The notes beneath the pieces are model-generated. The model did not search any database. It was given only the letters and a program-made list of their open reading frames with translations, and was not told the DNA's origin. From Fibrobacterota bacterium (GTDB taxonomy: Bacteria; Fibrobacterota; Fibrobacteria; UBA11236), in the NCBI GenBank assembly GCA_019509785.1, contig JAEKLQ010000050.1, forward strand, positions 1-53,228: DNA of 53,228 nucleotides, written 5' to 3'. Numbering within the stretch: position 1 is the first letter of the stretch; every line of letters begins with the position of its first letter. The position numbers and the translations under genes are program-made. Positions 13,931-25,493 of this stretch are shown piece by piece.

Positions 13931-14133
13931 CGAATTCCTTGGCTGGACCGCGAGCCAAAGTAGCAAAGGCAGGGCCGGAATCCGGGTCCGTATCCAAAGA
14001 ATACTTACCGCCCCGGCGGGGTCGGATGCCGGCGGGACGTAACTTCATTCCGCGTTATCTAGTTTTGCGAACGGATCATCCGCTAAGCCCCGATGAAGGA
14101 AACCGTCGCGAGGCCCGATAAAGGATGCGTAAA

Positions 14134-15618
14134 ATGGGTACGGGAAAAGTAAGCAAATCGGTTGGCTATGTCCTGTGCCTTTTCTGCATATCCCCATTGG
14201 CCCAGACGCGCATTGACATCAGCGGCAAGGTCACCGATCAGACCGGCAAGGGTCTCGCTGGGGTAACCGTAACGCTCAAGATCAACAAGGCGTCCGCCAA
14301 CACGGCCGCGGATGGCGCCTACCATCTGGATGGTTCCTCGTCTAACGCCATCCGTCCCGCCAAGCAGGGAACGCCGGTGCTCGCTTTCAACGATCGCATG
14401 CTCGAGTTCACCGTGCCCGACGACTACGACGAGGTGCGCATCGCCATCCATGATCTCACGGGCAGATCGATCGCATCGGTCTTGGATTCCAGGCTCGCGA
14501 AGGGAAGCTACCGGATCAATCCTTTCGTGGCCGATCTGGAATCGCGCCTCGCCATCCTCAGCGTGAAAATCGGAGCCGAATCCAATAGCATGAAGATGTT
14601 CGGGACCGGTGACCGCTCCGTTCCCGCCGGCGTTCCGCATCGCGTGGATCCGCCCGCCTCCGCTTCCCTGCGCAAGCCGGCCGCGGATCCCGCCACTGAT
14701 ACCTTGTCGGTGAGCAAGCCGGGGTGGTCCTCGGACGACCTGACCCTAGACTCCTTGACCGGCACCCACGACTTCCTGCTCGTTCGGCCCGAAATCTTCT
14801 GGGGCGATCCCGCCGCCTACCCGGCGGCCACGAACGTCATGACCTATGTCTTCCTCAACCGTACCAACGGCAAGTATACGGATGACCAGGTTTTCTGGAG
14901 CTTCGGGAACCAGACGCATTCCGTCGCGGAGCAACCCTTCATCGACATGCCCGCCAACTCCTCCGGCCGCGTGAACTTCCACCTGGAAACCGCCACCGGC
15001 AAATATGCGGACTTCATCGAACATACCATCAGCCCCACGGTGTGGAACGGGAACACCACGCGCGTGGACGGGTTCGGGATCCCGATCGCCATCCGACTCA
15101 TCTGCGGTGACGGCACCGACCAGATGCTGGGCGAGAAGTACGATGTCTTCTATAAGGGCCGCGACGCCTTCTTCAAGGCCTATAAGAACGCGGTGCCCGC
15201 CGAGTTCTATCCCACGGCGGAAACCGGCGCGCCTTACCGCATCATCGCCCCCGGCAAGGGCGACGGCGGCTTCAACGTCGGGCAGAAATACGCCGCTTAT
15301 TACGATGGCTACCTGAAGGAGCTCGGCATCACCGGAGCGACGACCAACCAGGTCTTCGCCTGCGAAGGCACGCCCTTCGGTTCGGACGCGCAGTTAGCCG
15401 GGGCGGTGAACCGCCATGTCGCGCACCTTCCCAAGGCGGAATGGCTGAAGGCGGAGAACTTTTACAAGCAGGCTCCCGCGAATTACTACGCGAAGTTTTT
15501 CCATGAGCGGAGCTTCCAGAAGAAGGCCTATGGGTTCGCTTACGATGATGCCGCCGGCTATGCCGCCTACGCGTCCTGTTCCAAGCCCAAGTACCTGCTC
15601 GTCGCCATCGGTTTTTGA
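14134..15618 (+). CDS. Secreted GH64-type beta-1,3-glucanase with N-terminal regulatory-like and sorting-like modules
   Basis: About 494 residues. After a signal peptide (ending SPLAQT) comes a carboxypeptidase-regulatory-like beta domain (ISGKVTDQTGKGLAGVTVTL; landmark GKGLAGVTV), then a beta module with IHDLTGRSIASV and KGSYRINPF that resembles sorting/FlgD-like modules normally found at C-termini, and then the catalytic region (about 225-494). The last region carries NRTNGKYTDDQVFWSF, RVDGFGIPIAIRL, and NYYAKFFHERSFQKKAYGFAYDD, the pattern of laminaripentaose-producing beta-1,3-glucanases (GH64, thaumatin-like fold). Start: ATG at 14134 has AAAGG nine bases upstream; ATG at 14125 adds three residues. 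The GH64 call is by motif memory; the module order is seen directly. Confidence 0.82.
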   Translation: MGTGKVSKSVGYVLCLFCISPLAQTRIDISGKVTDQTGKGLAGVTVTLKINKASANTAADGAYHLDGSSSNAIRPAKQGTPVLAFNDRMLEFTVPDDYDEVRIAIHDLTGRSIASVLDSRLAKGSYRINPFVADLESRLAILSVKIGAESNSMKMFGTGDRSVPAGVPHRVDPPASASLRKPAADPATDTLSVSKPGWSSDDLTLDSLTGTHDFLLVRPEIFWGDPAAYPAATNVMTYVFLNRTNGKYTDDQVFWSFGNQTHSVAEQPFIDMPANSSGRVNFHLETATGKYADFIEHTISPTVWNGNTTRVDGFGIPIAIRLICGDGTDQMLGEKYDVFYKGRDAFFKAYKNAVPAEFYPTAETGAPYRIIAPGKGDGGFNVGQKYAAYYDGYLKELGITGATTNQVFACEGTPFGSDAQLAGAVNRHVAHLPKAEWLKAENFYKQAPANYYAKFFHERSFQKKAYGFAYDDAAGYAAYASCSKPKYLLVAIGF

Positions 15619-15744: not shown

Positions 15745-16590
15745 ATGATCACCCTGCGCCAATACGCCCCTGGGGAAGCCATTATCCGCGAGAAAGAGAT
15801 CGGGGAGTGTGCTTATATCATCGAGAAAGGCCGCGTGGAGATTACGCGGGAAAAGGAAGGCAAGTCGGCCCATATCGCCTTCCTGGACGCGGGCATGACC
15901 TTCGGGGAAATGAGCATGGTGGACGATCTGCCCCGTAGCGCGACGGTTACAGCCGTCGAGGAGACCATGGTGCGGGAAGTCCATCGGGACAACCTCTACG
16001 AAAACCTGACCAGCAATCCCGAGACCATGATCAAGCTGCTGAAGGGGATCTTCGAGCGCCTCCGTATCGCCAATACCACCATCGCCCGCTTGAAGGAGGA
16101 AATCAAGGCCGCAGGGGGCGAGAAGCCGGCCATCTCCGAGGCGGCGATACCGGAAACCGCCCAGTTCCTATTCCACCGAGGGGCCGGAAAATCCGAGTTC
16201 GCCCGCGCCCAGCCGGGAAGCGTGAAATCGGTGCGCATCGAAGGCCTTACGCCCCGCGCCGTCGAGTCCTTAACGGGAAGCCAATCCACCTTCGCGGCCT
16301 TGCCCATCAAGGTCGGTCGCAAGACCAACGATCCCATGGTCCACAATCATTTGGAAATCGCCGATCGCGATCCGCTCCAGATCTCCCGGCACCACGTCAG
16401 CATCGTCCAGGAGGGCGACAAGGTTGGGGTGCTGGATCGGGGGAGCCACCTGGGGGCCTCGGTGGACGATGAACGCATCGGAGGGAAGAGCGAATCGCCC
16501 GGCCCCGTCTTCTTCAAAGGCGACGGGGGAGTCTTGGTGTTGGGGACCGACAAGTCGCCGTATCGCTACAAGGTCAGCATCGAACGCTGA
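15745..16590 (+). CDS. Cyclic-nucleotide-binding domain fused to an FHA domain
   Basis: 281 residues. N-terminal cNMP-binding domain (about 3-95) with an intact phosphate-binding cassette: FGEMSMVDDLPRSATV, Glu55 and Arg64 being the expected ribose and phosphate contacts. A helical linker (95-175) follows where CRP-type proteins have the dimer helix, but there is no helix-turn-helix. The C-terminal part (about 182-280) is an FHA domain: VGRK (190-193), ISRHH (213-217), LDRGSHLG (230-237), so it should bind phosphothreonine. It would be a cAMP or cGMP reader that joins a phosphoprotein complex rather than DNA. Strong ribosome binding site AGGAGA. It sits convergent to the pilin operon, 22 bases from its last gene. 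Confidence 0.9.
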   Translation: MITLRQYAPGEAIIREKEIGECAYIIEKGRVEITREKEGKSAHIAFLDAGMTFGEMSMVDDLPRSATVTAVEETMVREVHRDNLYENLTSNPETMIKLLKGIFERLRIANTTIARLKEEIKAAGGEKPAISEAAIPETAQFLFHRGAGKSEFARAQPGSVKSVRIEGLTPRAVESLTGSQSTFAALPIKVGRKTNDPMVHNHLEIADRDPLQISRHHVSIVQEGDKVGVLDRGSHLGASVDDERIGGKSESPGPVFFKGDGGVLVLGTDKSPYRYKVSIER

Positions 16591-16611: not shown

Positions 16612-18333
16612 TCAATTCAACATTCCGTAGTCGCGGTGCCAGTTGGAAACCGGCGCGCCGTGCGGACGCCCCATCTTGAGATTGGTGACGATGCGGGACG
16701 TAGAACTGAATTCATGCCGCTCGCATTGGAAGAAATCGAAGGCATAGGTTTGCCCATACGAGAGCCAGTTCAGATCATCGAGATTCAGGATGGAGTTGGT
16801 GGAGCTGTGAATGCCTCCCAGATCGATGACGAGTTTATTGTTGATGAAGGTCCAAACGTCATCGTCGCCGGTGAACTCGAATATCAGGCCCGACTGGTAC
16901 AGGAAGGTGGTATGCATCTCCATGCAGAAGGAGTAATTGTGAGGAGAGGCTATGGGGTCATGCCAGTGCGAGTCGAGAGGGAAGAATTCCTGTTCGCCGC
17001 GGAAGGATGTGAGGGGATCGCCGGTAGGCAAGTTGCCCATGCGGCTGAAGACATAGGTGTAAGGCCCTTGGGACGCATCAAGATCAAATTGCAAGGAATC
17101 GTAGATCTTCACATTCTTGTAGGTATCCCCGGCGGGGTTCGCCTTGGTCTTATTGCAATCCGTCGCCGTCGAGTATTGGTAATCCAATGGATCGAAGGTC
17201 CAGTCCTTGAACCACTTGTTCACGCCGCAACCGTAATTGGCGGAGGGGATATTGCGCACGGGTTTGGGGATATGCGTCCTGCCGAAATAGCCCGCGTCCG
17301 CGACGGTGGAATCGGAGAGGGTGGATTGCACCATGTCCTTCTTAACGCCATAAGCATATACCGGCATGTCGAATTCGGGATGCCCGACGGAGGGGAAATC
17401 GTGGTAGATGACGGGCAGGTTCGATTGCTTGGGCGGCTGTACGGCTACGCCTTGCAAGGATAGGGACTGCACCAGGTTCTGGCGGTAAGCGGTATCGGTC
17501 GGGTGCCCGGGCCGCATGAGGATGGCTTCCGAGGTGATGCGGTAGGCATCCATCCCAATCGGGGCCACGCGGTAACGCACCGGCACGGTCCCCACCAAGG
17601 TGCTCGAGTTGTAAACCGGATCGGTCCTGTATTCGCTCAGGTATTGCCCGGTAATGGGCCGTTCGGCGAAGAATTCGGGCCCGTTCCATCCCACCTGCCC
17701 TACGGTCCAGCCTCCGCCTTGCTTATGGTAATATTCGAAGTAGTACCGCTTGCCGGCCTCCAGCGAGACGGGCGCTGAAACCCCCGAGCCGGAGGATGGC
17801 CAAGCCGTCACCCAACCGGGTTCTATCCTGCAAATCGGTTTGACGCCCAGATGCTTCGGATCATCGTCGGAGCTCAAGTAGAAGTGGGATTCGTCATCCG
17901 AACGGGTAATGAAGGTATAGGACCCGGAGAGAGGGGGTATGACCCACCCCGTCCATTTCAGCCCGAAATTGAATTGTTCCAGGCTGGAGCCCAGATAAGG
18001 CGAAGAGAGGGTATCGCTGTAAGGCGTCGTCTTCGTCAATTTCTCGAAGTTGGACACGCTGCCTCCCGCGATCCCGGTCCAGATCTCCCCGCGGATACGG
18101 CCGGTGCGGGTGGAGTCCACGTATTTGTAGGCCTTCCCGTTGATCAGTTCCTGGGCCAGAAGTGTCACCATGCCGTCGGAGGCCATGAAGGTCCGGATCT
18201 TGTTCTTGTAGTTGATGGCCGACATGCGGCCCATTTTCCCGTTGAATAACATTCCGATGGAGATGGCCGTCACCCCCAAAATCAGGAAGATCGTCATAGG
18301 AAGAACGAAACCGTTCTCACGGAATTTCCGCAT
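16612..18333 (-). CDS. PilX-like minor pilin carrying PA14 and fibro-slime domains (copy 2)
   Basis: 573 residues. N-terminus MRKFRENG then FVLPMTIFLILGVTAISIGM: a class III/prepilin-type leader cut after Gly8, a long hydrophobic helix, and NYKNKIRTFMASDGMVTLL, the PilX/GspK-like helix pattern. Position 5 of the mature protein is Met, not Glu, as in capping minor pilins. Residues about 110-235 form a PA14-like domain (GLKWTGWVIPP, YTFITRSDDESHFYL, YYFEYYHKQGGG). Residues about 320-565 form a fibro-slime domain (GHPEFDMP, CGVNKWFKDW, FEFTGDDDVWTFINNK, VIDLGGIHSS, FFQCERHEFSSTSRI). I chose ATG at 18333 because it aligns the leader with the paralogue; ATG at 18354 adds seven residues. Last gene of the pilin operon, 37 bases after its paralogue. 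Confidence 0.9.
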   Translation of the reverse strand: MRKFRENGFVLPMTIFLILGVTAISIGMLFNGKMGRMSAINYKNKIRTFMASDGMVTLLAQELINGKAYKYVDSTRTGRIRGEIWTGIAGGSVSNFEKLTKTTPYSDTLSSPYLGSSLEQFNFGLKWTGWVIPPLSGSYTFITRSDDESHFYLSSDDDPKHLGVKPICRIEPGWVTAWPSSGSGVSAPVSLEAGKRYYFEYYHKQGGGWTVGQVGWNGPEFFAERPITGQYLSEYRTDPVYNSSTLVGTVPVRYRVAPIGMDAYRITSEAILMRPGHPTDTAYRQNLVQSLSLQGVAVQPPKQSNLPVIYHDFPSVGHPEFDMPVYAYGVKKDMVQSTLSDSTVADAGYFGRTHIPKPVRNIPSANYGCGVNKWFKDWTFDPLDYQYSTATDCNKTKANPAGDTYKNVKIYDSLQFDLDASQGPYTYVFSRMGNLPTGDPLTSFRGEQEFFPLDSHWHDPIASPHNYSFCMEMHTTFLYQSGLIFEFTGDDDVWTFINNKLVIDLGGIHSSTNSILNLDDLNWLSYGQTYAFDFFQCERHEFSSTSRIVTNLKMGRPHGAPVSNWHRDYGMLN

Positions 18334-18370
18334 GGCTTGAATCCCCGTCTCCATCTATCCGTTCACGCGG

Positions 18371-20095
18371 TCAATTCATCGAACCGTAATCGCGATGCCA
18401 GTTGGTCACCGGCGCGCCCTGGGGCCGGCCCATCTTGATATTGGTCACGATCCGGCTCGTCGAATTGAATTCATGCCTTTCGCATTGGAAGAAATCGAAG
18501 GCATAGGTTTTCCCATAGGTGAGTCCCGTCAAATCATCCAGGCTCACGATGGCGTTGGAAGATGCGTGGACGCCTCCCAAATCGATGATCAGTTTGTTAT
18601 CGACGTAGGCCCATACGTCGTCATCGCCGGTGAATTCGAATTTGAGGCCCGATTGATGCAAAAAGGTGGTATGCAACTCGGTACAAAAAGAGAAGTTATG
18701 CCCTGAGCCCGCCGGATCTTGGCCCCGCCAGTCGAGGGGGAAATACTCGGCCTCGCCTTTAAAGGCCGTATGCGGATCGCCGGTGTTAATATTGCCTTGG
18801 CGGCTGTACACGTAGGTGTACGGTCCTTGGCTTTCGTCCAGATCGAATTGCAGCGAATCGTAGATTTTCACGTTCTGATAAGTAGTTCCTGCCGCGTTGA
18901 ACTTGGTTTTATTGCAATCCGAGGGATTCGTATACGCGTAGTCCCACTGATCGAGGGTCCAGTCCTTGAACCATTTGTTCACGCCGCAGCCATAGTTCGG
19001 GGTATTCGCGGCATGGAGGGGTTTGGGGATATGCGCGCGCCCGAAATAGGCCGCGTCCGTGGCGGTGGAGTCGCTCAAGGTCGGCTGCACCATCCCCGTA
19101 AAGACTCCGAGGCTGAAGGCGCCCGGCATATCGAATTCGGGATGGATCTTGGATAGGAAATCGTGATGGATGACGCGGAGGAACAGATGCGGCGGGGCCG
19201 GGATGGGCGGGCCCTTGAGGGATAGCATTTGCTCCAAGGGAAGGCGGTAGGCCGTATCGCTGGCATTCCCGGGGCGCGTCAGCACCGCCTCGGCGGAGAT
19301 GCGGAAGGCGTCCAATCCCATGGGCCCCACCCGGAAGCGCACGGGAACCCCGCCCAATTGGACCAAACCATTGTACTCGGGATCGGTCTTGTATTGGCTG
19401 AGGTATTGCCCGGATATGGGGCGCTCGGCGAAATATTCCGGGCCGCTCCAGCCCAACTGGCCCACGTCCCAGCCGCCGCCTTGCTTGTGGTAGTATTCGA
19501 AATAATACCGAGTCCCAGCGACCAATCCGATGGGGCCGGAAACCGCTTGCCCGGTTGTGGGCCAGCTGACCACCCAGCCCGGTTCGATGCTGCAAATAGG
19601 GCTGGCGGAAAGATGGCCCTGTTCCGCGTCGGTGCTGAGGTAGAAGCGGGACTCGTCGTCCGAGCGGGTGATGAAGGTGTAGGCGCCCGTAATCGGAGGC
19701 ATGAGCCATCCGGTCCATTTCAAGCCGTAATTCGACTGATTCAGATTCGATCCGAGATAGGGGGAGGAAAGGGTGTCGGTGAACGGGGTGGAGGGGATCG
19801 CGGCCATGAAATTCGCCACGCTGTTCCCGCCCATCCCCGACCAGATATGGCCCTGGATGCGGCCGGTGCGCGTGGAGTCCACGTATTTATAGGAGTTCCC
19901 GTTGATGAGCTCCTGGGCCAGCAAGGTTACCATGCCATCGACGGCCATGAAGGTACGGATCTTGTTCTTGTAATTGATGGTCGACATCCGCCCCATGCGC
20001 CCGTTGAAAAGGATGCCTACGGAAATGGCGGTGACCCCCAGCACGAGAAGGATGGTCAGGGGCAATACGAAACCGTTTCCGCGCGGTCCCTTCAT
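18371..20095 (-). CDS. PilX-like minor pilin carrying PA14 and fibro-slime domains (copy 1)
   Basis: 574 residues, same plan as the next gene downstream: leader MKGPRGNG, hydrophobic helix FVLPLTILLVLGVTAISVGI, PilX-type helix with NYKNKIRTFMAVDG, PA14-like domain (GLKWTGWLMPP, TFITRSDDESRFYL) and fibro-slime domain (IHPEFDMPG, CGVNKWFKDWTLD, FTGDDDVWAYVDNK, IDLGGVHASS, FFQCERHEFNSTSRI). The two copies are identical at most positions in the N-terminal helix and PA14 part and differ more around residues 85-100 and 300-350. The PA14 fold binds sugars in many adhesins, and fibro-slime proteins are surface-associated in Fibrobacter. Its start overlaps the PilW-like stop by four bases, so it is translationally coupled. 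Likely role: adhesive cap of a type IV pilus or pseudopilus. Confidence 0.92.
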   Translation of the reverse strand: MKGPRGNGFVLPLTILLVLGVTAISVGILFNGRMGRMSTINYKNKIRTFMAVDGMVTLLAQELINGNSYKYVDSTRTGRIQGHIWSGMGGNSVANFMAAIPSTPFTDTLSSPYLGSNLNQSNYGLKWTGWLMPPITGAYTFITRSDDESRFYLSTDAEQGHLSASPICSIEPGWVVSWPTTGQAVSGPIGLVAGTRYYFEYYHKQGGGWDVGQLGWSGPEYFAERPISGQYLSQYKTDPEYNGLVQLGGVPVRFRVGPMGLDAFRISAEAVLTRPGNASDTAYRLPLEQMLSLKGPPIPAPPHLFLRVIHHDFLSKIHPEFDMPGAFSLGVFTGMVQPTLSDSTATDAAYFGRAHIPKPLHAANTPNYGCGVNKWFKDWTLDQWDYAYTNPSDCNKTKFNAAGTTYQNVKIYDSLQFDLDESQGPYTYVYSRQGNINTGDPHTAFKGEAEYFPLDWRGQDPAGSGHNFSFCTELHTTFLHQSGLKFEFTGDDDVWAYVDNKLIIDLGGVHASSNAIVSLDDLTGLTYGKTYAFDFFQCERHEFNSTSRIVTNIKMGRPQGAPVTNWHRDYGSMN

Positions 20096-20970
20096 AAGCG
20101 GTTCCTGAGGATTACGTTCATGGGCAGGGTAATCCTGCGATAGCCGCCTGCCAGCCTGGGGTCGGACATGGCGGTACGCGCCCGCACGGTAATCTGGGCG
20201 GAGCGCATGGACTTCCAGAAGGTCGTCGTGGCGCCGGCCGCGTCCTTGAAGACGAAGGCGAGGGAATCGATGCTCTCGGCCAACACCATTTGCGCCCCCG
20301 TATTGCCGTCCGGACGCAAGATCAAATCGGTTCCCGAAGCGCCGCCGAGCAGGTATTGGTCCTCCCGGTATCCGTATACGCGATCCCCTACGGAAAGATC
20401 CACCGTGGCCGTGATCCGGAGGGTATCCATGCCGGCCGGCATGTCCTTGATCCCTTTCACGTATCCGTTAGCGTTATAGCCCGTATCGATGACCCGTTTG
20501 ACGATGGTTTTGGCGGGATCGGCGAAGTCGATCAGGACGTTGGCGACGTTGAGCAGGACGTTCCCGGTGCTCTGCCATTGGGTGGCGTCGCTGATAGGGA
20601 TAGATTGGGAATTCGGGGAATCCGTCCCGACGAACTGGATCGCGTTGCGCGGATTCACGGCCACCGTGGTTATGCCGGCTGTCTGGCTAATCACCGTCCA
20701 CCCGGTATCGGGAAGCCCCGATCCCGATTGCTGCAGGATCTCGGTAAAGCGGGTCACCACGAAATGGGCGTTCTGATCGCGTTCCTGCATTTGATCCTGC
20801 ATGCTGTACGCGTGATATGAGTCGCGATAGAATCGCACGATGCCCATGCCGATGATCACGCTGGCCACCATCGCGATCAGCGTTTCGATGAGGGTGAATC
20901 CGGGCGCCCCCCGGACCGGATCCCCGCAGCGCGCCCGTTCCCGGGCGGTTTCAGAACCGTTTCGATACAT
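20092..20970 (-). CDS. PilW/GspJ-like minor pilin
   Basis: 292 residues. A 24-residue leader ends in APG, followed by FTLIETLIAMVASVIIGMGI, with Glu at mature position 5: a classic prepilin peptidase site. Downstream RFYRDSYHAYSMQDQMQERDQNAHFVVTRFTEILQQSG (landmarks RFYRDSYHA and ARFVV-like NAHFVVTRF) is the PilW pattern, and the C-terminal half is beta-rich. Minor pilins of this class form the priming complex at the tip. Overlaps the PilV-like gene by 20 bases and the PilX-like gene by 4. Confidence 0.9.
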   Translation of the reverse strand: MYRNGSETARERARCGDPVRGAPGFTLIETLIAMVASVIIGMGIVRFYRDSYHAYSMQDQMQERDQNAHFVVTRFTEILQQSGSGLPDTGWTVISQTAGITTVAVNPRNAIQFVGTDSPNSQSIPISDATQWQSTGNVLLNVANVLIDFADPAKTIVKRVIDTGYNANGYVKGIKDMPAGMDTLRITATVDLSVGDRVYGYREDQYLLGGASGTDLILRPDGNTGAQMVLAESIDSLAFVFKDAAGATTTFWKSMRSAQITVRARTAMSDPRLAGGYRRITLPMNVILRNRL

Positions 20971-21376
20971 AGGTGGTGACCGTTAGGGAGTCGGGATAGG
21001 GCCGGGTCCAGGCCGCGACCAGGTCCATCTTCATGACGTTGTTGACCACGGCGTTGTCCACGGGCGAATAGGCGGGGGAGACCGTGCTGCGGATGGTGAT
21101 GTAATCGGGAGCCACGGCCGCCACGGTACGGGTGACGGGAGGCCAATTGTGGGTGGTGTCCCGGGCGATGGTGATGCGGGTGTCCTCCAGGAATTTCTCC
21201 AGCATCTTGCCTGCGACCAGGATGCGGGAGTTCTCGCCGCTGCCGCGGCTAGAGGAATGCTGCACGCGGGAAAAGAACAGCAGCCCGATGCCCACGACTA
21301 CGACGGCCGCCAGGACCTCGATCAAGGTCCATCCGCCTTGGCGTTGCGATCTACGTGATTCCGTTTGCGCGCTCAA
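20951..21376 (-). CDS. PilV/GspI-like minor pilin
   Basis: 141 residues. Leader MSAQTESRRSQRQGG, cut before WTLIEVLAAVVVVGIGLLFF, with Glu5 present. The remainder has a short helix (ILVAGKMLEKFLEDTRI) and a C-terminal beta sheet (PDYITIRSTVSPAYSP, SLTVTTYVSKRF). Size and order in the operon fit PilV/GspI. Its start codon overlaps the upstream FimT-like stop (ATGA). Confidence 0.88.
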   Translation of the reverse strand: MSAQTESRRSQRQGGWTLIEVLAAVVVVGIGLLFFSRVQHSSSRGSGENSRILVAGKMLEKFLEDTRITIARDTTHNWPPVTRTVAAVAPDYITIRSTVSPAYSPVDNAVVNNVMKMDLVAAWTRPYPDSLTVTTYVSKRF

Positions 21377-21972
21377 TGTTTGGTCACTTTCACCCGGCCC
21401 GTGCTGGCCAGGACGTCCAGGGTATCCTTGAATCCCTTTAACGTCAGCGTCACCTTGGCGCTAACGGTTGCCGATCCATCGCCTCTAAACACCACCTCGG
21501 TGGGTAATCCCGCGGGAACCGCGATGGTGATGCTCTGCTTGCGCGGAATCACGAAGGCGGAAAGGTAAAGCTGGTCCGTTCCCGCTACGAAATGGTTATC
21601 CGGGGGGTTGGCATCCAGGTAGGCGAAAACGCTATCGTCGAGAAGGCTTCCGGCGGCATGGAATTTAAAAACGACCCCGCAATGGCGATCAGGGCTAGCG
21701 ACGGCGCGCATGCGGGCGTTCAATAAAAAGTGCTTCATGCCGTCGGCGGCATTCTGGACGCGAATGCGGCGAACGAGACCGCTTAGCGGCTTGGCGGTAA
21801 TGGCGCTTAGGATCAGGATGACGCATACCGTCATGACCACTTGCATGACGGTATATCCCGCGGAACCAGGAAACAGGCTATTCGCTTTAATCGTCATAGG
21901 GTTATCTGATACATCCTTGACCATCGTACCTAACACATCCTTGACTTTCGATCCCGAGCCAACCTTTGCCAT
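21373..21972 (-). CDS. FimT/GspH-like minor pilin, first gene of the pilin operon
   Basis: Up to 199 residues. A prepilin-type site SAG before YTVMQVVMTVCVILILSAIT, with Gln in place of Glu at mature position 5. The body ends in the FimT/GspH pattern: EVVFRGDGSATVSAKVTLTL and a final STGRVKVTKH. Three in-frame starts are possible: ATG at 21972, at 21924 (leader of 23 residues) and at 21897 (leader of 14 residues); none has a strong ribosome binding site. The two shorter leaders are more usual. First gene of a run of five overlapping or nearly touching genes, so the promoter should lie upstream, in the gap shared with the divergent lipoprotein gene at 22213. Confidence 0.85.
   Translation of the reverse strand: MAKVGSGSKVKDVLGTMVKDVSDNPMTIKANSLFPGSAGYTVMQVVMTVCVILILSAITAKPLSGLVRRIRVQNAADGMKHFLLNARMRAVASPDRHCGVVFKFHAAGSLLDDSVFAYLDANPPDNHFVAGTDQLYLSAFVIPRKQSITIAVPAGLPTEVVFRGDGSATVSAKVTLTLKGFKDTLDVLASTGRVKVTKH
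21911..21945 (-). repeat. Direct repeat GTCAAGGATGT at the start of the pilin operon
   Basis: The 11-bp sequence GTCAAGGATGT (minus strand) occurs at 21935-21945 and again at 21911-21921, 24 bases apart. If translation starts at 21972 it encodes a VKDV repeat; if translation starts at 21897 it lies in the leader region and could be a regulator site. The 21898-22212 stretch otherwise holds no gene that I can support. Confidence 0.5.
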
Positions 21973-22212: not shown

Positions 22213-23847
22213 ATGTCATTTTGCAGGAACCTGGCAACCAGCCTGCTCTGCTTAACCGTCTTTGGATGCCTGGACACGAACCCAAACAACTCTTCCGCCC
22301 CCATCCAAACGGCGCGCGTTGGTTCTGCTCCGCCTAGCCGTCCCGATTGCATCGACCAGACTTTGCTCATGGTTCTGGACCGGGACGCGTTGTCCCCGGG
22401 GCGCAACCGCTTTTCCGAAGCCGATCTCAGCTGTTCCAGGAAACGCGTGGGCAACCGGGCGACCATCGATTGGTTTAGCCGCAATATCGGCCAGGAGGTG
22501 ACGCTTACTGCCGGAGAGGTCGGTAACGAAGGGTGGTTCGCCTTTTCCTCCGTGCGGATCGCTTGGAAGTCGGCCGGCCCGGATCACGAGGACGGATTGC
22601 GCAATTACCTGGATGCCGGGGCGGGCTTGGGCTCCCCCGACAAGTCCGGAAAGAAGGAAACCTTGCTTGATAGGGTATCGGGCCTGGTCCCCTTGCGCGC
22701 CACCGGTCTGGCGCGGTTGGAGGGCCGATCGGTCTGCGCCTTGGTGCTTGATGGGGATGTACGTATGTCCTACGCGCCGCCGCTCGGGGATCTCCGCGGG
22801 GACTATCTGGGTAAAGCCGCCTTCCTGATCCTTTCCGTCGACGACAAGGCGCGCCGCTCCGGCGGGGAATTGCCGCAGGTGCGGGTTCGCGTGTTGGATG
22901 CGGAAGCGGTCTGCGCCGATCCCTTGTCGATGTTCGACGAGGCGCCGCCGACCGTATCCGCCCAAGAACCGCGCGATGCCGAAAGGCCCGCGTGCGTGGT
23001 CCAACGCACGCTCTTGAACGAACCCTGGAACGCCATCGATACCGCCCTATGGCGGGCGGATGAAGATGCGGTCGCGGAGGATGGCTTATTCCAAGCCCGC
23101 GATGGATCGGGGTCGGCGGCGGCGGACTGGATCCCCAAGTGCCCTTTGGCCCTGGACACCAATACGGTCATCCGCTTTTCCAATCGGATGCGATTACTGG
23201 ATCCGGTCGCCAATGATTTCACGGAAAGCGGGGCGCTCTTCCTGATCAACGCCGATGCGGACGAGAGCTTCGCCAACTATGCCTTCCTGAACATGGGTTT
23301 TACGGGCCAGCCCGGGAAAATCTTCGTGGAGATCTTCGGCTCCAGCGGCGGGCTGGATTTCGACCAGTTCGAGGAAAGTTCCCTCGGCTCCGCCCCCAGT
23401 GTCACTTTCACCCTCGACCTGCTGGTTTCCAAGGATGCCTACCGCGTGGTCGTGGGGGATGAGGCCGTGGATACGGTCACGCTGGCATCCCCGTTGCCGG
23501 CGGTCTCCCTGTTCGAAGTTGGCGTCCAGCAAATCGGCTTCGGCATGCGCGGGCTGGTTGACCAGACCACGGTTTCCGTGCAATGCAAGAACGCGAAAGA
23601 ATCGGAGCGCCGTTGCCGGCCCCATTCGAAGCACCAGTTTTGCTGGCGAGAAGGAAGGATCCACTGCAGATCCGGGTCGATAGCCTCCGAAATATTGCGG
23701 AAATCGACCCTGGTGCGAAGGCACATCCGCTGCCGCAACGATCTGATCCGGATGGCGAAGGAGAAGTGCGGCCGCATGGCGCATCCCCCGAAGGGATTGG
23801 CAATGCTGGCGAAGTTGAAGCCTATGCCGGAGACGGAACCGCGTTAA
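22213..23847 (+). CDS. Lipoprotein of unknown function with possible lectin-like domain and odd C-terminus
   Basis: About 544 residues from ATG at 22213; this start gives a clear lipoprotein signal (MSFCRNLATSLLCLTVFGC, lipobox VFGC). Starts further upstream would bury this signal. The middle has no family I recognise (LLMVLDRDALSPGRNRFSEADLSC, SFD-like segments). The part from about residue 290 to 475 (NEPWNAIDTALWRADEDAV, VIRFSNRMRLLDP, ALFLINADADESFANYAFLNMGF; landmarks only) looks like a concanavalin A-type beta sandwich. The last 80 residues, after VSVQCKN, turn Arg/Cys/Lys-rich and low in beta pattern, which could be a true tail or the result of a frameshift. Divergent from the pilin operon and overlapping the cyclase stop by four bases. 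Confidence 0.68.
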   Translation: MSFCRNLATSLLCLTVFGCLDTNPNNSSAPIQTARVGSAPPSRPDCIDQTLLMVLDRDALSPGRNRFSEADLSCSRKRVGNRATIDWFSRNIGQEVTLTAGEVGNEGWFAFSSVRIAWKSAGPDHEDGLRNYLDAGAGLGSPDKSGKKETLLDRVSGLVPLRATGLARLEGRSVCALVLDGDVRMSYAPPLGDLRGDYLGKAAFLILSVDDKARRSGGELPQVRVRVLDAEAVCADPLSMFDEAPPTVSAQEPRDAERPACVVQRTLLNEPWNAIDTALWRADEDAVAEDGLFQARDGSGSAAADWIPKCPLALDTNTVIRFSNRMRLLDPVANDFTESGALFLINADADESFANYAFLNMGFTGQPGKIFVEIFGSSGGLDFDQFEESSLGSAPSVTFTLDLLVSKDAYRVVVGDEAVDTVTLASPLPAVSLFEVGVQQIGFGMRGLVDQTTVSVQCKNAKESERRCRPHSKHQFCWREGRIHCRSGSIASEILRKSTLVRRHIRCRNDLIRMAKEKCGRMAHPPKGLAMLAKLKPMPETEPR

Positions 23848-25493
23848 CGCTTGGGCATCACCAGATCGTCCACCACTTCGTGGACGAAAACCTGGCGCGA
23901 TTTGCCTTTGAGCTGGACGGCCCCCAGGCTTACGGTACGGAAGCGGCCTTTCACCTTCTCCAGCATGCTGTCGGTGATGAGGACCTGGTTGGGCCGGGCG
24001 ATGCCGCATACGCGCGAGGAGATGTTCACGGTGTCGCCGATGGCGGTGTATTCCATGCGGGTGCTGGTGCCGATGCTGCCCACCACCACATCCCCGGTGT
24101 TCACGCCGATGCCGACCTGGAATTCGGGAATGCCCGCGGCTTTCCATTCGGGCAGCTTCTGCTGCAGGCGGTTGCGCATTTGCAGGGCCGTCTTCACCGC
24201 GAAATACTCGTGGTCGGCCACCGGCACGGGGGCGTTGAAGAGCACCATCATGCAATCGCCGATGAACTTGTCCAGCGTGCCGCCGTTCGCGAATACGATG
24301 CCGCACATTTCGGAGAAGTAGTTGTTGAGCAATTGCGCGACTTCGAGCGGCGCCAGGGATTCGGAGAGCGGGGTGAAGCCGCGGATGTCGGCGAAGAGCA
24401 CGGTGACCGTGGTCTTTTGCGATTGCAGGTGGAAATCGCTGCTGCCGCGCTCGGCGATGATTTTATCGGCGATGTTGGGCGAACAGAAGCGCTTCAAGTG
24501 ATCGCGGATCAGCGATTCCGTTTCCAGCTTCTTCGAGAGCTGCAGGTTTTCGATGGCCACGCCCGAGATGCCGGCGATGTTCATGGCCAGATCGAGGTCG
24601 TCGCCGTTGAACTTGGCGCCGCGCTTCTTGTTGTCGAGGTACAGGACGCCATACACCTGCCCTTCGGAATGGATGGGGCAGCATAAGGCCGTCTTGATGC
24701 GCAACTGGAATATGGAGAGACTCTGATCCTGCTCGCCGCTCTCGTCGCTGTCGAAGATGAAGCCCGACTTCTTCTGGATCACCGTGGAGACCAGGGTGCG
24801 GCTGTATAGCTTCTCCTCCAGGTTCTGCTTGCGCACGCCCCGCTCGTACGCCAAGTGCTCGCTGATGGCGTCGTGGTTGGCCGGATCGGTCACCAGTATG
24901 TAGCCGGTATCGCAATTCACTGCCTCGAAGAGCAAAGTCATGGTGCGATCCAAAAGGTCGGCTACGCTGTGAACCAACCCGAGGGATTTGATCATCTTGT
25001 TGATGACCGCCATGCGCTTTGCGAAGCTGTCCTGGGAGGGATCGGCCGCGGTCCCGCCGATTTTCTTTTCCTCCACGATGTTGAAGTCGAAGCTGGAATT
25101 GTTGAGGGACTTGGGCCGCCCTTCCAGGGGGCGCGCGCCGGGAGCGGTCTCCTGCACGCCCCAAAGCGAAGTGCCCGTCTTCATGGTATTGTCCACCGCG
25201 GCGCCGGCCTTCAGGCGCAATTCGGTGTTACCAATGAATAGGGTCGCGCCGTCCCGCCACTTGGCCTTGCGCACCCGCTGGTCGTCCAGGTAGATGCCGT
25301 TGGTGGAGTTCTGATCGATGATTTCCGCCTCCTGGCCCTGCACCAGGATGATCGCGTGCTTGGAGGATATGCGCGGGTCGGCGATCTCGATATCGCAACC
25401 TTTCTCGCGGCCCAAGACGTTGCTGCCCTCTTTCAGAAGAAAGCGATTGCTTGCGAGGTTGGCGGGACTGCTGATGATCTCGATGTAGGGCAT
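23844..25493 (-). CDS. FHA-GAF-class III adenylate/guanylate cyclase
   Basis: 549 residues with three domains. FHA (about 2-95): NVLGRE (25-30), ISSKH (42-46), NSTNG (62-66), so it should bind phosphothreonine. GAF (about 165-320): TMTLLFEAVNCDTGYILV through VYGVLYLDNKK, a likely small-molecule sensor. Class III cyclase (about 358-540): metal-binding Asp369 in FADIRG and Asp413 in FIGDCMM, substrate-choosing Lys409 and Thr483, transition-state Asn490 and Arg494 in VNISSR. The Lys/Thr pair is that of class IIIb adenylate cyclases, so cAMP is the likely product. No membrane segment, so cytoplasmic. Located two genes from the pilin operon; the cNMP-binding FHA protein lies on the other side of that operon. 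Confidence 0.95.
   Translation of the reverse strand: MPYIEIISSPANLASNRFLLKEGSNVLGREKGCDIEIADPRISSKHAIILVQGQEAEIIDQNSTNGIYLDDQRVRKAKWRDGATLFIGNTELRLKAGAAVDNTMKTGTSLWGVQETAPGARPLEGRPKSLNNSSFDFNIVEEKKIGGTAADPSQDSFAKRMAVINKMIKSLGLVHSVADLLDRTMTLLFEAVNCDTGYILVTDPANHDAISEHLAYERGVRKQNLEEKLYSRTLVSTVIQKKSGFIFDSDESGEQDQSLSIFQLRIKTALCCPIHSEGQVYGVLYLDNKKRGAKFNGDDLDLAMNIAGISGVAIENLQLSKKLETESLIRDHLKRFCSPNIADKIIAERGSSDFHLQSQKTTVTVLFADIRGFTPLSESLAPLEVAQLLNNYFSEMCGIVFANGGTLDKFIGDCMMVLFNAPVPVADHEYFAVKTALQMRNRLQQKLPEWKAAGIPEFQVGIGVNTGDVVVGSIGTSTRMEYTAIGDTVNISSRVCGIARPNQVLITDSMLEKVKGRFRTVSLGAVQLKGKSRQVFVHEVVDDLVMPKR

What the first reader, a model, noticed from the sequence alone, without database searches (positions are those of the whole stretch)
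16612..21972. Minor-pilin operon in which the PilX-like cap subunits carry PA14 and fibro-slime adhesion domains
Seen: five overlapping or nearly touching minus-strand genes, FimT-, PilV-, PilW-like, then two ~575-residue proteins with a prepilin leader and PilX-type helix fused to PA14 and fibro-slime domains. Known: FimT/PilV/PilW/PilX (or GspH-K) form the tip-priming complex of type IV pili and type II pseudopili, and PA14 binds glycans in adhesins. Inference: the pilus tip itself is the cellulose- or slime-binding head, in place of a PilY1 adhesin, which would give a physical basis for fibre attachment in this phylum. I do not know a description of this fused layout.
Basis: partly seen in the sequence, partly recalled or inferred. 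Interest (0 to 1): 0.85.

Follow-up and report, generated by a model that had tools for sequence, protein, structure and literature searches.

The report
Pilus-tip subunits fused to sugar-binding domains
A soil or groundwater relative of Fibrobacter has a gene cluster for the tip of a retractable hair-like fibre (pilus) whose capping subunit also carries two sugar-binding-type domains, and related bacteria use the same subunit with the first of those domains exchanged for other ones, which suggests a pilus with an interchangeable sticky head.

Summary
Five touching minus-strand genes (16612-21972) form an H-I-J-K minor-pilin operon (FimT-, PilV-, PilW-, PilX-like) with two tandem K genes. Each K protein is prepilin leader and helix, PA14 domain, predicted pilin beta-sheet, fibro-slime domain. 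The same four-gene layout occurs at nine further loci in four other species of the genus. Operons in three other Fibrobacterota families keep the K helix, the strands and the terminal fibro-slime domain, but replace PA14 with F5/8-type-C, GH115_C, DUF1349 or an unnamed module. All K proteins lack Glu5 and end in W-x-R-[DE]-[YF]-G-x-x-[DNE]. PA14 and fibro-slime domains keep the Asp-Asp pair that holds calcium and sugar in PA14 lectins. The genome encodes PilB, PilT, PilC, PilM, PilO and a secretin; no PilY1 was found in 168 genomes, though no positive control rang. Best reading: K caps a type IVa pilus and is its glycan-binding tip. The ligand (cellulose, slime or other) is unknown. The family f3, probably Fibrobacteraceae, lacks the fusion, so it does not explain rumen cellulose attachment. 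Pilin-PA14 fusions are already listed (Raynaud 2021); new here are the fibro-slime cap in K, the swappable slot and the tail.

The parts
21373..21972 (-). H subunit (FimT/GspH-like minor prepilin, 199 aa); cleavage likely SAG|YTVMQVV after residue 39; Gln where relatives have Glu5
   Evidence: ORF; 34-60% identical to H genes of the 9 related operons; weak XpsH/PRK10506 match; position-5 comparison
20951..21376 (-). I subunit (PilV-like minor prepilin, 141 aa, TTG start), GG|WTLIE
   Evidence: TIGR02523 PilV E 4.8e-6, below cut-off; conserved in all related operons
20092..20970 (-). J subunit (PilW-like minor prepilin, 292 aa), PG|FTLIE
   Evidence: N_methyl E 0.0021, PRK10557 E 0.004; conserved in all related operons
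18371..20095 (-). K subunit copy 1 (574 aa): modular PilX-like prepilin with PA14 and fibro-slime domains
20072..20095 (-). K1 prepilin leader, residues 1-8, cleavage NG|FVLPL (no Glu5)
   Evidence: alignment of 21 K proteins, Gly8 invariant
19904..20071 (-). K1 alpha-1 helix, residues 9-64
   Evidence: AlphaFold2 helix 10-64, pLDDT blocks 82-92
19391..19858 (-). K1 PA14 domain, residues 80-235, Asp146-Asp147 pair; occupies the slot that holds other modules in relatives
   Evidence: Pfam; Foldseek Flo1/Flo5/Epa/RTX-adhesin PA14; slot mapping
19220..19369 (-). K1 predicted pilin beta-sheet, residues 243-292 (four strands)
   Evidence: AlphaFold2 strands 243-247, 250-260, 263-274, 277-292; block conserved in K proteins without PA14
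18431..19189 (-). K1 fibro-slime domain (PA14-like fold), residues 303-555, GDDDVW motif at 490-495
   Evidence: TIGR02148; AlphaFold2 strands; motif conservation
18374..18403 (-). K1 C-terminal tail NWHRDYGSMN, residues 565-574
   Evidence: signature at the end of every K+fibro-slime protein whose C-terminus was read
16612..18354 (-). K subunit copy 2 (580 aa), tandem duplicate, 69% identical to copy 1
18310..18354 (-). K2 prepilin leader, residues 1-15, cleavage NG|FVLPM (no Glu5)
18142..18309 (-). K2 alpha-1 helix, residues 16-71
   Evidence: by alignment to K1
17629..18096 (-). K2 PA14 domain, residues 87-242
   Evidence: Pfam E 8.9e-19; position by alignment to K1
17458..17607 (-). K2 predicted pilin beta-sheet, residues 250-299
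   Evidence: by alignment to K1
16672..17427 (-). K2 fibro-slime domain, residues 310-561
   Evidence: TIGR02148 E 2.4e-32; position by alignment to K1
16615..16644 (-). K2 C-terminal tail NWHRDYGMLN, residues 571-580

Best explanation
The operon encodes the tip-priming H-I-J-K complex of a type IVa-like pilus in a soil/groundwater Fibrobacterota lineage, and its K (cap) subunit is itself the tip adhesin. Shown by sequence or model: prepilin leaders; H-I-J-K order; K without Glu5; a PA14 domain between the K helix and a predicted pilin beta-sheet; a fibro-slime domain after that sheet; conservation of the layout; replacement of PA14 by other modules in other families. Inferred: after prepilin-peptidase cleavage H, I, J and K form the initiating complex with K on top, so the PA14 and fibro-slime domains face outward at the far end of the filament. 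There they bind sugars through calcium held by the conserved Asp-Asp pairs, and PilT-driven retraction pulls the cell to, or along, the bound surface. The slot after alpha-1 is an exchangeable specificity cassette; the fibro-slime domain and the W-x-R-D-Y-G-x-x-D tail are the constant part. The ligand (plant or fungal polysaccharide, the cells' own slime, or another glycan) is not determined.
For: Operon and domains. Nine more operons with the same order in four species; further ones in families f7, f9, f11 with swapped modules but the same helix, strands, fibro-slime domain and tail. Position 5 is Glu in H, I and J and never in K in the operons compared, except Gln in the window's H and an unresolved I and J in one f11 operon; a cap subunit lacking Glu5 is the published mark of K (PMC10191384). 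AlphaFold2 model, mean pLDDT 84.5: helix 10-64, PA14 sandwich, four-stranded sheet 243-292, second sandwich. Foldseek: glycan-binding PA14 domains of Flo1, Flo5, Epa and RTX adhesins. Asp146-Asp147 aligns with the Asp-Asp of Flo5 and is kept in most PA14 rows; fibro-slime Asp492 is kept in 43 of 44 rows. Machine: PilB and PilT-family above curated cut-offs, PilM, PilO, secretin, PilC. No PilY1 found.
Against: No experiment. No assembly gene lies in the window, and the genome has several type 4 filament systems (PilB, GspE-like and other ATPases; further minor-pilin sets on C29, C39, C54, C64), so which machine uses this set is not shown. No solved pilin among the top 50 Foldseek matches and no PDB sequence match for the K helix. 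PilY1 absence had no positive control. PA14 and the Asp-Asp pair also occur in proteins that do not bind sugar.
Confidence: 0.72

Rival explanations
1. The set caps a type II secretion pseudopilus; the PA14 and fibro-slime domains of K select or push out secreted proteins (for instance glycosylated or polysaccharide-bound enzymes) instead of attaching the cell.
For: H-I-J-K sets are shared by T2SS and T4P and interchangeable (PMC10191384). The genome has T2SS-like clusters on C29 and C64. A GH64-like glucanase gene lies nearby at 14125-15618. No PilY1 was found, as in T2SS.
Against: Those clusters carry their own J- and K-like genes of a different kind. T2SS K subunits are not known to carry lectin folds. 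Some species keep two or three such operons, which fits adhesin variety better than one secretion channel.
Confidence: 0.15
2. K is a modular minor pilin whose lectin domains bind the cells' own slime or neighbouring cells, so the pilus works in aggregation or exopolysaccharide-dependent twitching and not in attachment to plant fibre. (This differs from the best explanation only in the ligand.)
For: Among the closest solved folds are yeast flocculins that bind self glycans. The fusion is missing from family f3, probably Fibrobacteraceae and the best known fibre degraders, and present in soil or groundwater lineages.
Against: The module varies between families (F5/8C, GH115_C, DUF1349), which fits varied outside ligands. 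No slime-synthesis locus was linked.
Confidence: 0.35
3. The proteins are membrane-anchored surface lectins that merely borrow a pilin-type signal and are not built into a filament.
For: G093 has a K+fibro-slime gene with no H, I or J beside it on its short contig (L226). Multidomain K proteins are bulky.
Against: H, I and J genes lie directly upstream with conserved overlaps in nearly every case where the contig allows a check. A predicted beta-sheet follows the helix and module. Position-5 rules match those of a cap subunit.
Confidence: 0.06

Closest known systems
Modular type 4 pilins (Raynaud et al. 2021, PMC8179133; S. sanguinis PilB with vWA, PilC with lectin, PMC9934059)
   Same: A class III prepilin carries a grafted adhesive module and is thought to sit at the tip; pilin-PA14 is among the 15 commonest architectures in that survey.
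   Different: That survey keyed on the N_methyl motif, which these K proteins do not match. Here the module sits in the K position of a complete H-I-J-K set, between alpha-1 and the predicted sheet, with a second PA14-like (fibro-slime) domain after the sheet and a conserved tail. I found no fibro-slime pilin described.
FimU/PilV/PilW/PilX plus PilY1 tip complex of T4aP (Myxococcus, Pseudomonas)
   Same: Four minor pilins in the same order prime the pilus; an adhesin is displayed at the tip.
   Different: There the adhesin is PilY1, a separate non-pilin. Here no PilY1 match was found and the cap subunit itself carries lectin-type domains.
GspK of type II secretion systems
   Same: Cap subunit without Glu5, with an extra domain inserted in the pilin fold.
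   Different: GspK's extra domain is a helical domain of unclear function (PMC8179133); here it is a PA14 or other carbohydrate-type module plus fibro-slime.
Fibro-slime proteins of Fibrobacter succinogenes (TIGR02148)
   Same: Same C-terminal domain, implicated in binding cellulose (PMC4668043).
   Different: Those examined in four f3 genomes carry Sec or lipoprotein signals, or their start lies outside the fetched DNA; none showed a pilin leader.
Tandem PA14 of a Clostridium clariflavum anti-sigma factor (PDB 6qdi, 6qe7)
   Same: Top Foldseek match; two PA14-type sandwiches in one protein.
   Different: An anti-sigma-factor domain protein, not a pilin; the match spans both domains with a poor overall superposition (rmsd about 19 A).

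Membership tests
Type 4 filament minor-pilin set H-I-J-K | Class III prepilin leader (G|F/M/W/Y + hydrophobic helix) on each subunit | tested here: met
Type 4 filament minor-pilin set H-I-J-K | Gene order H, I, J, K in one operon | tested here: met
   Window and nine genus loci; other families
Type 4 filament minor-pilin set H-I-J-K | K lacks Glu5 while H, I and J keep it | tested here: met
   exceptions: the window's H has Gln5, and I and J of one f11 operon (L116) were not resolved
PilX (Pfam PF14341 PilX_N) | Match to PilX_N | tested here: inconclusive
   No hit for the window K proteins. Other members of the profile family hit at 1.6e-5 to 0.05, and L227 is over the cut-off.
Pilin fold of K | alpha-1 helix packed on an antiparallel beta-sheet | tested here: inconclusive
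   AlphaFold2 helix 10-64 and strands 243-292, but packing was not inspected and no solved pilin was among the top 50 Foldseek matches
PA14 lectin | PA14 sandwich with Asp-Asp calcium motif in the first calcium loop | tested here: met
   motif meaning from PMC6218569 and PMC6650083
PA14 lectin | Calcium-dependent sugar binding | not testable with these tools
   Needs protein
Fibro-slime (TIGR02148) | Match over the curated cut-off of 45 bits | tested here: met
   111.2 and 105.4 bits
T4aP with PilY1 tip adhesin | PilY1 (PF05567) in the genome | tested here: inconclusive
   No match in 168 genomes, but no control genome rang
T4aP machine | PilB, PilT, PilC, PilM, PilO, secretin present in the genome | tested here: met
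   TIGR02538 and TIGR01420 over cut-off, PF00482, PilM_2, PilO, Secretin
[quoted passage not shown]

The most novel reading that the evidence does not exclude
Non-Fibrobacter Fibrobacterota have a distinct class of pilus cap subunit that replaces PilY1: a constant chassis (helix, pilin sheet, fibro-slime head, W-x-R-D-Y-G-x-x-D tail) with one slot after alpha-1 that accepts different carbohydrate-binding folds, so glycan specificity of the pilus evolves by cassette exchange.
Probability: 0.5. Interest if true: 0.72.

Novelty: new variant of a known kind. Interest (0 to 1): 0.62.

Why it matters
If right, it gives a directly testable case in which the pilus cap itself is a lectin, with natural versions that differ mainly in one cassette. 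It links fibro-slime domains, known from cell-surface cellulose-adhesion proteins, to pilus tips in uncultured Fibrobacterota, and it offers a sequence tag (the tail) to find such caps. It also limits the claim: the family f3, probably Fibrobacteraceae, does not have them.

Tried and rejected
PilX_N by Pfam on the window proteins: no hit, so membership was argued through the wider family. Fibro-slime proteins elsewhere in this genome and in four f3 genomes: no pilin leader seen, so pilin fusion is not a general feature of the domain; for over ten of the 28 f3 proteins the start lay outside the fetched DNA. Search outside the phylum: of the 37 hits outside the genus nearly all were PA14 matches in ordinary proteins without a pilin leader (Verrucomicrobiota, Bacteroidota, Planctomycetota and others); one small Saccharibacteria prepilin matched PA14 weakly (L190); no K-type fusion was seen, but that scan used only two peptide patterns. 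PDB sequence search with the K helix and with J: nothing. First AlphaFold2 model with 11 sequences was poor (pLDDT 66.8); a 76-row alignment with domain fragments raised it to 84.5. Three of the 25 tail-pattern matches (G103, G113, G047) lie in frames of 22 residues or fewer and were judged chance.
Full report
Observation. The five ORFs are at the stated coordinates with overlaps of 4, 20 and 4 nt and one gap of 16 nt. The two long proteins (574 and 580 aa; K1 = 18371-20095, K2 = 16612-18354) each have PA14 (E 3.9e-18 and 8.9e-19) and the fibro-slime domain TIGR02148 (E 1.6e-30 and 2.4e-32), and are 69% identical. The PA14 profile also scores a second stretch in each protein at the fibro-slime domain, so each protein has two PA14-type domains. 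The other three genes are short prepilins.

Context in the genome. The window is contig C50 of a 5.4 Mb genome. Close relatives named by a scan of GTDB genomes are MAGs called Fibrobacteres bacterium RYN_348, RYN_349, nzgw217 and Fibrobacteria bacterium Chersky_265; that they come from soil or groundwater is my inference from the isolate names. Of eleven fibro-slime genes in the genome only the two in the window were seen with a pilin leader. No pilus assembly gene lies in the window (by ORF reading). Elsewhere the genome has PilB (TIGR02538 over cut-off, C34), PilT-family ATPases (C21, C47), PilC, PilM, PilO, a secretin (C44), and T2SS-like clusters on C29 and C64. Further minor-pilin genes lie on C39 and C54. 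So a retractable T4aP machine is encoded, but which machine uses this set is inferred.

Same genus. A profile of K1 and K2 found full-length homologues only in the same genus among 60 relatives. All nine loci are H-I-J-K operons in the same order, with identities to K1 of about 60% (group I: L050, L051, L052), 42-43% (group II: L053-L055) and 38-39% (group III: L056-L058). Some species have two or three operons. Only the window has the tandem duplicate among these loci (L052 is cut by the contig end); G003 of the genus lacks the fusion and has a K-like protein without fibro-slime.

Other families. Searching 168 phylum genomes with the N-terminal 300 residues and then the K helix alone found the same kind of operon in families f7, f9 and f11. 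Their K proteins are 651-738 aa with fibro-slime at the C-terminus (E 1e-17 to 1e-36). In the middle they have F5/8 type C (L113, L118), GH115_C (L112, L114, L116), DUF1349 (L111, L117) or nothing named (L110, L115). A profile of the window family matches these proteins in separate blocks: helix (about 12-90), strands after the module (about 250-350; a separate block in five of the nine, joined to the fibro-slime block in L118), and fibro-slime to the last residue, skipping the PA14 block 83-249. This is the main evidence that PA14 sits in an exchangeable slot. In family f3 (111 genomes by my count; probably Fibrobacteraceae, judged from genome size and fibro-slime numbers) no K-type helix was found at E<=1e-4, no tail in a real ORF, and none of 28 fibro-slime loci from four f3 genomes showed a pilin leader, although for over ten the start lay outside the fetched DNA.

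Tail. All 21 K+fibro-slime proteins or fragments whose C-terminus was read end in W-x-R-[DE]-[YF]-G-x-x-[DNE]. A DNA pattern for it has 25 matches in 168 genomes against 1 for the reversed control. Of these 22 end ORFs of K proteins or K fragments, including new ones in G076 and G081, or a neighbour gene in G093 (L226:5213-6445) that ends in a fibronectin-like stretch (my reading) without fibro-slime; the other three are in frames of 22 residues or fewer. The tail's role is unknown.

Structure. With 76 sequences AlphaFold2 gives mean pLDDT 84.5, pTM 0.71: helix 10-64, PA14 strands 80-217, four strands 243-292, fibro-slime strands 303-551, tail strand 565-567 at low confidence. Foldseek places the PA14 part with Flo1, Flo5, Epa and RTX-adhesin PA14 lectins (TM to target up to 0.67). 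The Asp-Asp pair that holds calcium in such lectins (PMC6218569, PMC6650083) aligns with Asp146-Asp147 and is present in most PA14 rows (Asp at 34 of 39 and 31 of 39); fibro-slime keeps Asp at 492 in 43 of 44 rows and at 493 in all 43. The reading of 243-292 as the pilin sheet is an inference from the model and from its conservation in K proteins without PA14; no solved pilin appeared in the top 50.

Mechanism. Published work puts H-I-J-K at the tip, capped by a subunit lacking Glu5, with PilY1 above it in diderms (PMC10191384). In the operons compared H, I and J have Glu5 (one Gln in the window's H; one f11 operon not resolved) and K never. No PilY1 match was found in the phylum (no control rang). 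The simplest reading is that K, by carrying its own lectin domains, is the tip adhesin. Which glycan it binds is open; cellulose is only one candidate.

Prior art. Modular pilins are known; pilin plus PA14 is among the 15 commonest architectures in one survey (PMC8179133), and S. sanguinis PilC has a tip lectin (PMC9934059). Models of Fibrobacter attachment name fibro-slime proteins and pili as separate things (PMC4668043). The 2016 phylum study reports fibro-slime proteins and T4P genes separately and one fibro-slime protein with a FlgD domain (PMC4704652). Searches for fibro-slime with prepilin, and for minor pilin with PA14 domain and PilX, gave no description of this fusion. Only open-licence papers were searched. 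Hence 'new variant of a known kind'.

Noticed in passing
window 18374-18403 and 16615-16644; L226:5213-6445: C-terminal signature W-x-R-[DE]-[YF]-G-x-x-[DNE] on every K+fibro-slime protein read, and on one G093 neighbour protein that ends in a fibronectin-like stretch instead; function unknown.
   Followed up: partly
window 21373-21972: The H prepilin has Gln at position 5 (G|YTVMQ) where the H genes of the relatives checked have Glu.
   Followed up: partly
L227:1341-3293: In G093 a PilX_N protein over the Pfam cut-off carries a sortilin/BNR propeller-like module and no fibro-slime domain.
   Followed up: no
L223:5982-7817, L224:6478-8679, L225:3682-5712, L228:2770-4929: A second kind of large K-like prepilin whose C-terminus has a DTxYNxLxNMPPGTP-type sequence; three of the four (not L228) show weak matches to cyanobacterial HpsA (NF038301).
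   Followed up: no
L229:3698-9309 (G000 C54): Two further minor-pilin sets side by side in the same genome, one with a 512-aa K-like protein without a clear domain.
   Followed up: partly
L056, L057 and L058 loci: Group III operons lie near a secreted fibro-slime gene of 827-866 aa, a possible partner adhesin.
   Followed up: no
window 14125-15618: GH64-like beta-1,3-glucanase gene with a carboxypeptidase-regulatory-like domain close to the operon.
   Followed up: no
window 15745-16590 and 23844-25493: cNMP-binding/FHA protein and FHA-GAF-adenylate cyclase flank the operon; the cyclase gene is 84% identical to one near the orthologous operon in L050.
   Followed up: partly
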